Shown here piece by piece: positions 51,973 through 56,761 of a DNA stretch of 64,000 nucleotides. The DNA is from Stella humosa (lineage in GTDB: Bacteria > Pseudomonadota > Alphaproteobacteria > ATCC43930 > Allostellaceae), in assembly GCF_006738645.1 (NCBI RefSeq), contig NZ_AP019700.1, positions 1,190,001-1,254,000 on the forward strand. The letters run 5' to 3'. The translations under genes were made by a program, and so were the position numbers. The notes below the pieces were generated by a model. It made no database searches, was not told the DNA's origin, and saw only the letters and a list, made by a program, of their open reading frames with translations. How positions within the stretch are numbered: position 1 is the stretch's first letter; each line of letters starts with the position of its first letter.

Positions 51973-52082
51973 GCGAGGGTCGCCCTTGTCAGCCGCTATG
52001 CACGTTATGGGGGTATAAGGTAGAAAATACCCGCGGACCTTCGTTCGCAAATGGCGAGCGCGCGGATCCGCGGGAGGTTCTC

Positions 52083-53438
52083 ATGAGGCAAGTTCGAAAG
52101 GGACGCGCCCAGGTGTCGGCCCAGCCCGCCGCAGCCAACGAGGTGCGCGCGCAACCCGTGGATCCCTTCGGTACGGGATCTGGCGTTACAGGCCGCTACA
52201 TCGTGACATTTGCGGAGACCGACTCGGATGCGGCCGTACGCACGGTGCTGAAGTTTGGCGGCGCCAAGATGGCGGTCTCGACCGCGCGCGACGATCTGGC
52301 CGCAGCCAACGTCCCCGACAGTGGGGTTTACTTCGACAGGCTCGGAATAGCGGTTGTCAACGTCGATCCCGGTGCCGCGGGCTCACTCATGGCGTCGAGT
52401 GCCGCCGACGCCGGCATCCTGTCGGTGGAGCCGGAGCCGATCGTGTATGCCATCGGTGCAGGCGGCTCGGTATCCGAAGAACTAGCGGCCTACCTGCGCG
52501 GCTACCGCGACGGCGTTCGCGACGCCATTGCCAAGGTCCTGGGAGACGACGAAGGCATTGCCAGCACGCAGGCTGCCGCGTGGGACGAAGCCCGCGAGAC
52601 CTGGGGCCTTCAGGCGACCCGGGTGCTGCAATCGCGCTTCACCGGTCGCGGCATTCGCGTGGCGGTCCTTGACACCGGAATCGACTTCACGCACCCGGAC
52701 TTTCTATCGCGCGCGATCATCCATCGCTCCTTCATAGAGGGCGAAGAGGTCCAGGACGGAAATGGGCACGGCACCCACTGCGCCGGCACGGCATGCGGAC
52801 CGCGGGCGGCTGCGGTGCCGCCCCGCTTCGGCATCGCCTGCGACGCCGAACTCTATGTCGGTAAGGTCCTGGCAAACAGCGGGTTCGGTGCCGCCGGCAG
52901 TGTGCTGGACGGCATCAACTGGGCCGTAGGCGAGGGGTGCCATATCGTGTCTCTGTCACTGGCGAGCCAGATCCGGCCGGGCAACGGCCCGCTTGCCTTC
53001 TACGAGGCGGCCGGTCAACGGGCATTGGCGGCAGGAACGTTGCTCATCGCAGCCGCTGGCAACGACTCGCGCCGGCCGGGGCTGGTGCAACCGGTGTCCG
53101 CGCCCGCCAACAGCGTATCCATCATGTCGGTGGCGGCGCTCGCGCAAGATATGGCCGTGGCGCACTTCTCCAATGGCGGGGTGAATGCGGGCGGAGGCGG
53201 CATCGACATCGCGGCGCCGGGCGTCGATGTGCATTCGAGTTGGCCCCTGCCGACGCGCTATCGTTCCATTTCCGGAACCAGCATGGCCACCCCGCATGTG
53301 GCCGGGATAGCCGCCCTGCATGCGGAAGCAGACCCCAGCCTTCGCGGCATGGCATTGTGGTCGAAGCTGACGGCCAGCGCCCGGCGATTGTCGGGCAGCG
53401 CTCAGGACATCGGCTCGGGACTCGCCATCGCTCCCTAG
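52083..53438 (+). CDS. S8 family serine peptidase (subtilisin-like) with I9-like N-domain
   Basis: 451 residues from ATG at 52083 (GGGAGG six bases upstream). Residues about 36-125 resemble an I9 propeptide (GRYIVTFAETDSDAAVR to ILSVEPEPIVYAIG). The subtilase triad is complete: VAVLDTGIDFTHPDF (Asp), GNGHGTHCAGTACG (His), AAAGNDS (oxyanion Asn) and SGTSMATPHVAGIA (Ser). No signal peptide is visible, so it may stay in the cytoplasm or be exported by another route. A hairpin and a small gene for an I9-like protein follow, which points to a protease with a dedicated partner. It is 110 bases after the enolase-family gene and has its own AT-richer leader. Confidence 0.92.
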   Translation: MRQVRKGRAQVSAQPAAANEVRAQPVDPFGTGSGVTGRYIVTFAETDSDAAVRTVLKFGGAKMAVSTARDDLAAANVPDSGVYFDRLGIAVVNVDPGAAGSLMASSAADAGILSVEPEPIVYAIGAGGSVSEELAAYLRGYRDGVRDAIAKVLGDDEGIASTQAAAWDEARETWGLQATRVLQSRFTGRGIRVAVLDTGIDFTHPDFLSRAIIHRSFIEGEEVQDGNGHGTHCAGTACGPRAAAVPPRFGIACDAELYVGKVLANSGFGAAGSVLDGINWAVGEGCHIVSLSLASQIRPGNGPLAFYEAAGQRALAAGTLLIAAAGNDSRRPGLVQPVSAPANSVSIMSVAALAQDMAVAHFSNGGVNAGGGGIDIAAPGVDVHSSWPLPTRYRSISGTSMATPHVAGIAALHAEADPSLRGMALWSKLTASARRLSGSAQDIGSGLAIAP

Positions 53439-53450
53439 AAGGCGCAAAAT

Positions 53451-53481
53451 CGCTGCGGCCTTGACGGGGCAGGCCGCAGCG
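53451..53481 (+). terminator. Intercistronic hairpin between protease and partner gene
   Basis: A perfect 11-base-pair stem (CGCTGCGGCCT with AGGCCGCAGCG) and 9-base loop begins 12 bases after the protease stop. No T-run follows, so rather than a full terminator it may attenuate readthrough or stabilise one part of the mRNA and set the ratio of protease to partner. Confidence 0.5.
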
Positions 53482-53501
53482 ATGCAGCGAAAGATTATGC
53501 C

Positions 53502-53753
53502 ATGTCCCAGAGCGAGATCGTCGTCGTCGTCACCGAAGATGCGCGGGCCGACGACAGGCAGGTGAAAGCGATCATGCAGGCGGCAGCCGATGCCGGCCTC
53601 GAGCGATCCAAGTGGTTGCCGGCACTTGGGATGATTACCGGCAACGGGCCGAGTGCCGTGGTTCGCAATCTCCGGCGCATCGACGGGGTGGCATCCGTGG
53701 AGGGCGGCGATTTGACGGTCGCCATTCCGGAACCGGGCCTGCGACGGGGTTAG
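53502..53753 (+). CDS. Small I9-propeptide-like partner of the S8 peptidase
   Basis: 83 residues: MSQSEIVVVVTEDARADDRQ, then LERSKWLPALGMITGNGPSA and IDGVASVEGGDLTVAIPEPG. The beta-alpha-beta layout and the VVVV...GVASVEGG...VAIPE pattern match subtilisin propeptide (I9) and inhibitor folds. Similar short proteins next to S8 genes are often mislabelled ketohydroxyglutarate aldolase. It probably folds or inhibits the upstream protease. Position 64 bases after it, with the hairpin between, supports a bicistronic unit. Its stop overlaps the convergent amidase stop by four bases. Confidence 0.7.
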   Translation: MSQSEIVVVVTEDARADDRQVKAIMQAAADAGLERSKWLPALGMITGNGPSAVVRNLRRIDGVASVEGGDLTVAIPEPGLRRG

Positions 53754-55201
53754 GGCCGGCTGGGCCACTTCGCCGGATCCGGGATCGGCCGGCCGGTGGC
53801 CGGGTCGGCGGCGAACAGCTTCTCGAGGGCGAGGGCCGCACCCAGCGTGAAGGCGTCGCCGCCGCGCGGGCCGACGATCTGCAGGCCGAAGGGCAGCCCT
53901 TTCTCGTCGACGCCGCAGGGGATCGAGATGGCGGGGTGGCCGGTCATCGAGATGGCGTAGGTGATGCCGGACGTCGCGAAGTAGTGCGACAGGCTCATCC
54001 CCTCCATGTCGGTCGGATAGAGCTGATCCTTGGGGAAGGGGGACATCGCCTGGGTCGGCGCGATCAGCAGGTCGTGGCGGCCGAAGAAGTCCTGGAAGGC
54101 GCGGTAGACCCGGGTCTGGGCGGCATGGGCGGCCGCGAAGTCCGCCAGGGAGTATTTCAGCCCTTCCTCGTAGTTCGTGCGCGTGTTGCGGCCGAGGTCG
54201 GCCGGGTTGCGCTCGTAGATCGCCTTGTAGGCGGCCAGGAAATTGACCGAGCGGACGACGCGGTAGGACTGCTCGATGCCCTCGAAGTCGGGGTCCTCCG
54301 GCGTGAAGCGGGCGAAGGCGTCGGTCAGGCGGCGCATCCGGTCCTCGAACACGCGGCGGATCGAGGGCGCGATCGGCGTGAAGCCGAGGTCGACGGACCA
54401 GGCGACCTTCAGACGGGCCAGGTCGACGGCCGGCGGCCGGGCGAGGGCTGCTGCGGCCGCGGCATCCAGCAGCGGGTTGGCCATCGGGTCGCGCGGATCG
54501 TCGGAGGCCAGAACCGAGAGGAAGAGCGCGGTGTCGGCGACGTCGCGCGCCATCGGCCCCTGCACGCCCAGCGTCGACAGGCCGAGCCGGCGGCGCTCGG
54601 AGGCGACCAGGCCCGGCGTCGGCCGGAAGCCCACCACGCCGCACCAGGCGGCCGGCTTGCGCAGAGAGCCGCCGGTGTCCGAGCCGTGGCAGAGCGGCAG
54701 CATCGAGAGCGCCAGCGCCACGCCCGAGCCGCCCGAGGAGCCGCCGCAGGACAGCGCCGGGTCGAACGGGTTGCCCGTGGCACCATAGACGTCGTTGGTG
54801 GTGTTGCCGCCGGTCCCGAACTCCGGCGTGTTGGTCTTGGCGACGACGATGCCGCCCGCCCGCCTGATCGCCGCCACCAGCCGCTCGTCCCGCTCGGGCA
54901 CATGGTCGCGGAAGAGCGGCGAGCCATAGGTGGTGCGCAGGCCGGCCGTGTCGGTCAGGTCCTTCACGCCGATCGGCAGGCCGTGCAGCGGCCCGAGCGC
55001 GCCGCCCTGCATCACGGCCTGCTCGGCCGCGCGTGCCTCGGCCAGACCACACTCGAAATCGGTCGCGACGAGCGCGTTGACCGCGGGATTGGTCGCCTCG
55101 GTGCGGGCGATGCAGGAGCCCATCAACTCCACCGGCGACAATTGCTTGGCGCCGATCAGGCGGCGCAGTTCGACGGCGGAAAGATCGCAGGGCTCGGTCA
55201 T
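53750..55201 (-). CDS. Amidase signature family enzyme
   Basis: 483 residues from ATG at 55201; a GTG at 55213 is an alternative. The Ser-cisSer-Lys triad is in GLPIGVKDLTDTAG (Lys), ALSCGGSSGGSGVALAL (cis-Ser) and GSDTGGSLRKPAAWCG (nucleophile Ser). These enzymes hydrolyse a range of linear amides such as aryl- or alkyl-amides and carbamoyl compounds. No cofactor domain is added. It is convergent with the protease-partner unit and fits the window's theme of amide breakdown, but no operon partner identifies the substrate. Confidence 0.92.
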   Translation of the reverse strand: MTEPCDLSAVELRRLIGAKQLSPVELMGSCIARTEATNPAVNALVATDFECGLAEARAAEQAVMQGGALGPLHGLPIGVKDLTDTAGLRTTYGSPLFRDHVPERDERLVAAIRRAGGIVVAKTNTPEFGTGGNTTNDVYGATGNPFDPALSCGGSSGGSGVALALSMLPLCHGSDTGGSLRKPAAWCGVVGFRPTPGLVASERRRLGLSTLGVQGPMARDVADTALFLSVLASDDPRDPMANPLLDAAAAAALARPPAVDLARLKVAWSVDLGFTPIAPSIRRVFEDRMRRLTDAFARFTPEDPDFEGIEQSYRVVRSVNFLAAYKAIYERNPADLGRNTRTNYEEGLKYSLADFAAAHAAQTRVYRAFQDFFGRHDLLIAPTQAMSPFPKDQLYPTDMEGMSLSHYFATSGITYAISMTGHPAISIPCGVDEKGLPFGLQIVGPRGGDAFTLGAALALEKLFAADPATGRPIPDPAKWPSRP

Positions 55202-55788: not shown

Positions 55789-55821
55789 GGCGGTATCCAG
55801 GCCGGTGGCCTGGATACCGCC
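55789..55821 (-). terminator. 15-bp perfect hairpin after the SDR gene
   Basis: GGCGGTATCCAGGCC pairs with GGCCTGGATACCGCC around a three-base loop, starting 10 bases past the SDR stop. This is the longest perfect stem seen in the window. The following minus-strand sequence is AT-rich but has no uninterrupted U-run, so termination is likely but not certain. Confidence 0.6.
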
Positions 55822-56611: not shown

Positions 56612-56706
56612 AGCTTCACTCCCGATGCGGTTTCTGGCCCATCATCGGCGAGGACGCACCGGCTCGCCAAAGAAAACCGCCCAGGCTGCCCGCAGACAAC
56701 GAAAAA

Positions 56707-56733
56707 GGGGGAAGGCGTTGGGCGCCTTCCCCC
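56707..56733 (-). terminator. Rho-independent terminator of the PRC-barrel gene
   Basis: A perfect 11-base-pair stem (GGGGGAAGGCG/CGCCTTCCCCC) with a five-base loop, followed on the minus strand by TTTTTC. It lies 29 bases past the stop at 56762 and is the clearest intrinsic terminator in the window. Confidence 0.85.
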
Positions 56734-56761
56734 TCGAATGCGGGCCTATGCGGCCGGATTG

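What the first reader, a model, noticed from the sequence alone, without database searches (positions are those of the whole stretch)
52083..53753. S8 protease with a separate I9-like partner gene and an intercistronic hairpin
A full-triad subtilase without signal peptide, itself with an I9-like N-domain, is followed by a perfect 11-bp hairpin and then a gene for an 83-residue propeptide-like protein. A trans-acting chaperone/inhibitor in addition to a cis propeptide, with the hairpin tuning their ratio, would make this a self-contained control module, possibly cytoplasmic.
Basis: partly seen in the sequence, partly recalled or inferred. Interest (0 to 1): 0.6.

Follow-up and report, generated by a model that had tools for sequence, protein, structure and literature searches.

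The report
Protease paired with propeptide-like partner
A bacterial subtilisin-type protease with no evident export signal has its own folding/inhibitor domain and, right behind it, a separate small gene for a second, similar domain; the same two-gene unit turns up in many distantly related bacteria and looks like a mobile, self-restraining protease cassette.

Summary
The S8 protease (52083-53438) has a predicted I9-like N-domain and no evident signal peptide. The 83-aa protein (53502-53753) is predicted as a ferredoxin-like fold resembling subtilisin propeptides. The pair recurs: 63 of 92 S8 loci examined carry the small gene downstream, in eight phyla. With 26 outlying S8 proteins set aside, 63 of 66 have it; the exceptions are three Saccharopolyspora. 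A search with the small-protein family alone over 385 + 398 genomes gave eight strong genomes, all with the S8 gene adjacent. Here the pair is a 1.79-kb insertion: one same-genus genome has the empty site, another a Fic gene. The hairpin is real but not conserved. Most likely the small protein is a trans-acting propeptide-like inhibitor of a cytosolic protease; its tail often carries proline where the cis domain looks cleavable. Binding, inhibition and location are inferred, not shown. Closest precedents: malarial SUB1-ProM and Aeromonas ASP/ORF2. My literature searches showed no such bacterial family. New variant of a known kind.

The parts
52072..52077 (+). Shine-Dalgarno-like GGGAGG ahead of the protease gene
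   Evidence: read in sequence
52083..53438 (+). S8 (subtilisin-type) serine protease, 451 aa, no signal peptide evident
   Evidence: Pfam PF00082 E=2.7e-44; own-genome scan; catalytic motifs
52185..52448 (+). I9-like cis N-domain (residues 35-122)
   Evidence: AlphaFold2; block pLDDT 82-94 except 58-60 for residues 61-80; superposes at the propeptide position of pro-subtilisin E; family-level profile match to the small proteins
52476..52538 (+). predicted helical linker (residues 132-152) with a Y-x-x-G-Y-R-D motif
   Evidence: GYRD-like motif in 19 of 61 pair proteases
52644..53384 (+). catalytic domain (Pfam S8 match, residues 188-434)
   Evidence: VIA Z 39.7-41.6 to mature subtilisins in the listed rows
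53449..53483 (+). perfect 13-bp hairpin, 9-nt loop, no T-tract; local, not conserved
53502..53753 (+). small propeptide-like (I9-like) partner protein, 83 aa
   Evidence: family found in 61 of 92 loci by HMM; AlphaFold2 model pLDDT 87.9; VIA top row pro-subtilisin E, Z 9.4
53712..53750 (+). C-terminal tail of the small protein (residues 71-83), proposed active-site plug
   Evidence: low confidence in both models; tail statistics of the family; function is inference
51973..53762 (+). inserted two-gene cassette between enolase-family and amidase genes
   Evidence: 23 nt in its place in same-genus genome G001

Best explanation
The locus is a horizontally acquired two-gene cassette: a cytosolic subtilisin-type protease with its own cleavable propeptide domain, followed by a second, free-standing propeptide-like protein that acts in trans as the protease's dedicated inhibitor. 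Proposed course: (1) the protease folds with its cis N-domain in the classical propeptide site (predicted); (2) it may cut itself after that domain, whose tail mostly lacks proline at the presumed cut (inferred); (3) the separate small protein then takes the same site on the freed catalytic domain and blocks it with a tail that is either proline-guarded or ends at the P1 position, so that the enzyme is restrained in the cytosol until the small protein is lost or destroyed (inferred). Linkage is shown; folds are predicted; binding, inhibition, location and trigger are inferred.
For: Linkage: the small gene lies downstream on the same strand in 61 of 92 loci by HMM, 58 of the 61 within 150 nt, plus 2 by eye (L065, L067). 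The tree needs 3 changes of the label against a shuffled mean of 24.8. Searching with the small-protein family alone gave 8 strong genomes (6 genera), all 8 with the S8 gene adjacent. Cis and trans domains related: the small-family HMM hits the N-domain of the L064 protease (E=1.4e-7), and hhalign of the two families gives probability 84.7, E=6.6e-6 for a single comparison; the HMM also picks up the propeptide region of another S8 protease with a signal-like start, G711/L205, weakly. Fold: AlphaFold2 pLDDT 87.9; 21 of the 50 VIA rows are subtilase propeptides or the stand-alone inhibitor POIA1, the top row being pro-subtilisin E; profile match to the Tk-subtilisin propeptide E=0.0097. Cis N-domain at the propeptide position. 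Tail: in the Tk register, Pro just after P1 in 39 of 53 small tails that reach it, against 8 of 60 at the matching cis position. Acquisition: empty site in G001, Fic gene in G003, GC3 0.78-0.79 against 0.92-0.94.
Against: No binding or inhibition data. In the single-chain model the cis N-domain, not the small protein, fills the propeptide site, and the small protein's tail stays uncertain (pLDDT 61 and 53). Ferredoxin-like folds are common: no Foldseek match reached E<=0.001, and unrelated families score about as high as propeptides in VIA. Pfam I9 does not hit the window's small protein and hits 3 of 50 members weakly (best E=0.0086), fewer than a DAHP-synthase ferredoxin-like model (5 of 50, best 0.00077). 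By sequence three designed proteins outrank the Tk propeptides. The P1 register rests on one weak alignment, extended by one residue; the cis register was set by eye. Three Saccharopolyspora proteases do without the small gene. The check for signal peptides is crude.
Confidence: 0.68

Rival explanations
1. The small protein is mainly an external chaperone that helps the catalytic domain fold, as ORF2 does for Aeromonas ASP, with inhibition only transient.
For: Same gene order and a propeptide-like fold; ASP needs ORF2, encoded just downstream, to become active, and ORF2 also inhibits (passages of PMC5638518).
Against: ASP is called propeptide-deficient (title in that paper's reference list), whereas this protease has its own I9-like N-domain predicted at the propeptide site; three Saccharopolyspora proteases lack the small gene.
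Confidence: 0.2
2. The pair works as a protease toxin with its antidote (toxin-antitoxin or abortive defence): loss or destruction of the small protein frees the protease to damage the cell. This overlaps with the best explanation; it adds a biological role.
For: Patchy distribution (2 of 385 class genomes, the window's own included, by the protease at E<=1e-40), plasmid carriage, an insertion site that holds a Fic gene in a sister genome, no recurrent third gene, the pair on one viral contig.
Against: Of 98 neighbour proteins scanned against PADLOC at E<=1e-10, no model was matched by more than one (single matches include DndB, methyltransferases and others, and no control set was scanned). 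The three Saccharopolyspora proteases lack the would-be antidote.
Confidence: 0.2
3. The small protein is a substrate or peptide precursor whose conserved C-terminal peptide is released by the protease.
For: The last residues are conserved: 31 of 61 end in Gln, 30 of those 31 at 21-22 residues from the conserved Gly position.
Against: Relationship to the cis propeptide domain explains the protein better; Pro next to the presumed cut is unfavourable to cleavage (general knowledge).
Confidence: 0.04
4. Ordinary secreted subtilisin next to an unrelated small gene.
For: S8 proteases are common (three other S8 places in this genome, one of them in two pieces).
Against: Conserved linkage, tree and reciprocal search; no signal-like segment.
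Confidence: 0.02

Closest known systems
Plasmodium SUB1-ProM with SUB1 (PMC6993865; abstract, introduction and discussion read)
   Same: S8 protease that has its own propeptide, plus a stand-alone propeptide-like protein encoded nearby in the same orientation; shown there to be a potent, selective inhibitor
   Different: Eukaryotic, acting in a vacuole; not a bacterial two-gene cassette
Aeromonas sobria ASP/ORF2 (PMC5638518; passages read)
   Same: Serine protease with a helper/inhibitor encoded just downstream; the helper's C-terminus reaches the active site
   Different: ASP is extracellular and called propeptide-deficient; homologous operons reported there in four further genera (Vibrio, Shewanella, Chromobacterium, Pseudoalteromonas). 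Here a cis I9-like domain is present and no export signal is evident
Stand-alone I9 inhibitors: Pleurotus POIA1, yeast peptidase B inhibitor, Arabidopsis SPI-1; also TgMIC5 (as named in the introduction of PMC6993865)
   Same: Small proteins with the propeptide fold that act in trans
   Different: All eukaryotic; linkage to the target gene is not described in the passages read
Bacillus-type intracellular subtilisins (PMC6220982, first of 8 parts read) and their inhibitor IPI (PMC3901451, abstract start in the listing)
   Same: Cytosolic S8 protease needing restraint; a Pro at P1' keeps the ISP propeptide from being cut; a separate protein inhibitor has been reported
   Different: ISP propeptide is 16-20 residues, not an I9 domain; IPI has an Ig-like fold
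SpeB/Spi of Streptococcus pyogenes (passages of PMC4162386; the 2005 paper only as a reference title)
   Same: Protease gene with a co-transcribed neighbouring gene for a putative inhibitor; that Spi resembles the SpeB propeptide is recalled, from no call
   Different: Cysteine protease (recalled), secreted (recalled)

Membership tests
Peptidase family S8 (Pfam PF00082) | Profile match over the curated cut-off and intact Asp/His/Ser motifs | tested here: met
   E=2.7e-44, 152 bits against cut-off 21.8; motif patterns met in 65 of 66 proteases checked, window included; L020 fails only the Asn pattern and reads AATGN in the alignment
Inhibitor family I9 (Pfam PF05922), for the small protein | Profile match over the curated cut-off | tested here: not met
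   No I9 hit for the window protein; 3 of 50 members match weakly, best E=0.0086
Inhibitor family I9 (Pfam PF05922), for the small protein | Propeptide-like fold | tested here: inconclusive
   Model pLDDT 87.9; top VIA row pro-subtilisin E Z 9.4, rmsd 5.0, 74 aligned, but other ferredoxin-like proteins score nearly as high
Inhibitor family I9 (Pfam PF05922), for the small protein | Inhibits a subtilase | not testable with these tools
   needs an enzyme assay
Bacillus-type intracellular subtilisin (ISP) | Short N-terminal propeptide of 16-20 residues in place of a propeptide domain | tested here: not met
   About 170 residues precede the catalytic domain, with a predicted I9-like domain; definition from PMC6220982
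ASP/ORF2-type propeptide-deficient subtilase with external chaperone | Protease lacks a propeptide | tested here: not met
   cis N-domain predicted at the propeptide site
ASP/ORF2-type propeptide-deficient subtilase with external chaperone | Helper gene directly downstream | tested here: met
IetAS defence system (PADLOC IetS) | Subtilase paired with an AAA ATPase gene (recalled) | tested here: not met
   PADLOC IetS match E=2.9e-7 within the catalytic domain only; the genes on either side are enolase-family and amidase; only these two neighbours were tested

The most novel reading that the evidence does not exclude
A previously undescribed, widespread bacterial system in which a cytosolic subtilisin is held in check by two successive propeptide domains, one cleavable in cis and one proline-guarded in trans, which moves between phyla as a bare two-gene unit and serves as a triggered protease (toxin-antidote or defence effector).
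Probability: 0.2. Interest if true: 0.82.

Novelty: new variant of a known kind. Interest (0 to 1): 0.62.

Why it matters
The stand-alone propeptide-like inhibitors named in the introduction of PMC6993865 are a handful of eukaryotic proteins, and the bacterial precedent ASP/ORF2 concerns an exported enzyme without its own propeptide. A bacterial family with both domains, found in eight phyla as a linked pair, gives many natural variants for asking how a propeptide becomes a trans inhibitor and how cells tolerate a subtilisin in the cytosol.

Tried and rejected
Hairpin as a conserved regulator: rejected. Best perfect stem of 10 bp or more in 9 of 36 gaps of 25 nt or more, 8 of 36 when gaps are cut at 150 nt, 7 of 61 in the 80 nt after the small gene, and a mean fraction of 0.003 in 80-nt coding pieces. 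More frequent than in coding DNA, but neither homologous nor general. It lacks a T-tract, and its 3' arm ends 18 nt before the small gene's ATG, so it does not cover the usual ribosome-binding stretch.

Fusion by read-through: the S8 stop and the small ORF are in frame with no further stop in the 63-nt gap. Only 11 of 61 pairs are in frame, so this is no conserved trait.

Conserved operon: clustering 345 neighbour ORFs of 60 loci gave no third gene shared by more than 3 loci except one cluster in 8 loci that looks like short-chain dehydrogenases (crude ORF calls, naming by eye).

Defence context: 118 neighbour proteins were listed, 98 of them aligned as a list (A5) and scanned against PADLOC; scattered single matches. 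The 67 control neighbours were never scanned. The window's small protein and the small proteins of L022 and L044 have no PADLOC match, and those of the window, L044 and L026 no PHROGs match. The protease matches PADLOC 'subtilase' (E=1.3e-25) and IetS (2.9e-7) by its catalytic domain.

tblastn of the window's small protein against plasmids found nothing at E<=1, although all 11 plasmid loci fetched carry a small gene: single-sequence searches miss this family. In the order, the same query found one weak match (G012, E=0.009, stops inside) besides its own.

Co-evolution: distance-matrix correlation 0.49, permutation maximum 0.23 of 999. Shared ancestry explains this as well as contact does, so it is not used as evidence of binding.

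First fused alignment A3 misplaced the first strand of the small rows and was replaced by A4 with trimmed small rows. No coordinates are returned, so the place of the small protein in the fused model was not seen.

Novelty: the paper searches (no paper) showed no bacterial family of this kind among the listed titles and abstracts; lists were cut at 10-20 rows, and the library lacks most subscription papers.

Full report
WHAT IS THERE. The protease gene runs 52083-53438 behind GGGAGG, and the small gene 53502-53753 starts 63 nt after its stop. Pfam finds only Peptidase_S8 in the first and nothing over a cut-off in the second. The N-terminus of the protease has no signal-like hydrophobic stretch. 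Among the 61 pair proteases, 3 exceed a mean hydropathy of 1.8 over 11 residues in the first 40, against 8 of 21 S8 proteins of over 1000 aa; starts were chosen by script and the test is insensitive, so this is a weak check.

HOW FAR THE PAIR REACHES. tblastn of the protease against plasmids gave 231 records. I fetched 11 of the 20 listed (H1-H10 and H13). In 10 a hypothetical gene of 74-105 codons is annotated next downstream; in the unannotated eleventh (L013) the HMM finds it. An HMM started from 11 small proteins (window and 10 plasmids) and iterated finds the small protein in 61 of 92 loci (window, 11 plasmid loci, 80 genome loci), each time downstream on the protease strand. The median gap is 39 nt; 58 of 61 lie within 150 nt, the other three at 207, 300 and 596; 11 of 61 overlap by 4 nt (starts chosen by script). 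L065 and L067 have a short ORF of similar make-up just downstream that the HMM misses (by eye), giving 63. The 29 without are 3 Saccharopolyspora (L048, L063, L066), L075, L090, L091, L099 and 22 long S8 proteins, 21 of them over 1000 aa and L100 cut off by its locus end.

TREE. On a quick maximum-likelihood tree of the catalytic domains (92 rows; L065 and L067 counted as having the gene) the label needs 3 changes, against 24.8 for shuffled labels; starred branches force 2. L075 and 24 others without the gene form one branch and L090 is a long branch of its own; of the remaining 66 rows only the three Saccharopolyspora lack the small gene. Organism titles place the pairs in Actinomycetota, Pseudomonadota, Cyanobacteriota, Bacteroidota, Acidobacteriota, Chloroflexota (one MAG) and Bacillota (one genome); plasmids add Deinococcota. 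The title reader misfiles at least L051 (titled Rhodococcus) and L057 (titled Kocuria), so per-phylum counts are not given.

RECIPROCAL TEST. To avoid finding the pair only because I looked beside the protease, I searched with the small-protein alignment alone: 385 genomes of the class and 398 of the phylum, two draws that share at least the window's own genome. Eleven different genomes match at E<=0.001, the window's own included. Eight, from 6 genera, match at E<=1e-5, and all eight have the S8 gene adjacent on the same strand (in G112 a fragment at a contig end). Of the three weaker ones, G711 is the region before the catalytic domain of an S8 protease with a signal-like start, G677 looks like a CBS-type protein (by eye) and G351 has no S8 nearby.

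FOLD. AlphaFold2 on the 50-sequence alignment gives pLDDT 87.9 and E-H-H-E-E-H-E, with a loose tail from about residue 70. Foldseek against the PDB has no match at E<=0.001; pro-subtilisin E is third at 0.013 among other ferredoxin-like folds. VIA-align puts pro-subtilisin E first (Z 9.4, rmsd 5.0, 74 aligned); by my count 20 of the 50 rows are subtilase propeptides and one more is POIA1 (Z 7.3, rmsd 2.6, 72 aligned), interleaved with unrelated ferredoxin-like proteins. By sequence profile the first natural proteins in the PDB list are Tk-subtilisin propeptides (3vv2_B E=0.0097), behind three designed proteins. In Pfam, more members match a DAHP-synthase ferredoxin-like model (5 of 50) than I9 (3 of 50), all weakly.

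CIS AND TRANS DOMAINS ARE RELATED. The small-family HMM matches the N-domain of the L064 protease at E=1.4e-7; the next N-domains match only at 7e-4 and weaker. hhalign of the two families gives probability 84.7 and E=6.6e-6 for the single comparison (L016 dropped from the N-domain set). In a single-chain model of the whole window pair, residues 37-453 superpose as one body on unprocessed pro-subtilisin E (Z 44.4, 336 aligned, rmsd 2.6), against Z 39.7-41.6 and 256-270 aligned for the mature subtilisins listed. The cis domain is therefore predicted where a propeptide sits. The small domain is well folded there too (block pLDDT 91-97 over residues 481-540), but its tail stays at 61 and 53, so the model gives no evidence that it is docked.

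TAILS. In the alignment to the Tk propeptide, ungapped after the conserved Gly up to residue 68 of 69, the last residue would fall 13 positions after that Gly; that this residue is P1 is recalled. Counted from the Gly position, small tails are 13-16 residues long in 14 of 61, 21-22 in 40 and other lengths in 7; 31 of 61 end in Gln. Pro stands at the position after P1 in 39 of 53 tails that reach it and at the next in 34 of 51, but at the matching cis position in 8 of 60 (cis register set by eye). [quoted passage not shown] Hence the proposal that the cis domain is cut and the trans domain is not. This is inference; the window protein (tail VAIPEPGLRRG) has one extra residue before its tail.

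ACQUISITION. In same-genus genome G001 the enolase-family and amidase genes match up to window 51972 and from 53763, with 23 nt between; in G003 the same place holds 1.65 kb with a Fic-domain gene (Pfam Fic E=5.3e-16); G002 has no enolase match at E<=1e-80 and is not informative. GC at third positions is 0.78 and 0.79 in the pair against 0.92 and 0.94 in the flanking genes. The protease at E<=1e-40 is in 2 of 385 class genomes and 1 of 43 order genomes, the window's own counted in both. Neighbours of other pairs mostly do not recur. So the pair appears to move, and to suffice, as a unit of two.

VIRAL CONTIGS. Of the 80 viral-contig loci kept, only L102 has a convincing small gene (E=3.5e-18; next best 0.15).

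READING. The strongest statement the evidence carries is that bacteria of eight phyla hold a linked pair of an S8 protease without evident signal peptide and with a cis I9-like domain (modelled for the window's protein), and a separate I9-like protein. That the second restrains the first is the natural inference from the behaviour of propeptides, from SUB1-ProM (PMC6993865) and from ORF2 (PMC5638518), and remains to be tested. The hairpin is a local feature, perhaps of message stability or partial termination.

Noticed in passing
L195 1681-3216 (minus strand), G003: A Fic/DOC-family gene occupies the same enolase-amidase junction in a sister genome, suggesting a spot of variable gene content.
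   Followed up: partly
L048, L063, L066: Three Saccharopolyspora proteases of the pair group lack the small gene; they also read HGTHV where the other pair proteases shown read HGTHC (the G122 pair in L010, also reads HGTHV).
   Followed up: partly
L016 2646-3107 and 3070-3957: In a Streptomyces avidinii plasmid an upstream hypothetical gene overlaps the start of a short S8 gene, as if the N-domain were a separate ORF or the gene were frameshifted.
   Followed up: no
L014 4628-6694 and L042 3946-5946: Similar large genes follow the pair in a Streptomyces plasmid (annotated serine protease) and in a Cyanobium.
   Followed up: no
L032 2099-3547, L054 2175-3518, L035 1368-2699: Related genes (cytochrome P450-like by eye) lie upstream of the protease in three loci.
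   Followed up: no
window 55789-55821 and 56706-56734: Two more long perfect hairpins (15 and 12 bp) nearby; whether they lie between genes was not examined.
   Followed up: no
L102 2572-4084: One contig of the viral collection carries the pair; whether it is truly viral was not examined.
   Followed up: partly
protease residues 132-152 (window 52476-52538): A predicted helical linker with a YLxGYRDGV-like motif follows the cis domain; a GYRD-like motif is in 19 of 61 pair proteases.
   Followed up: partly
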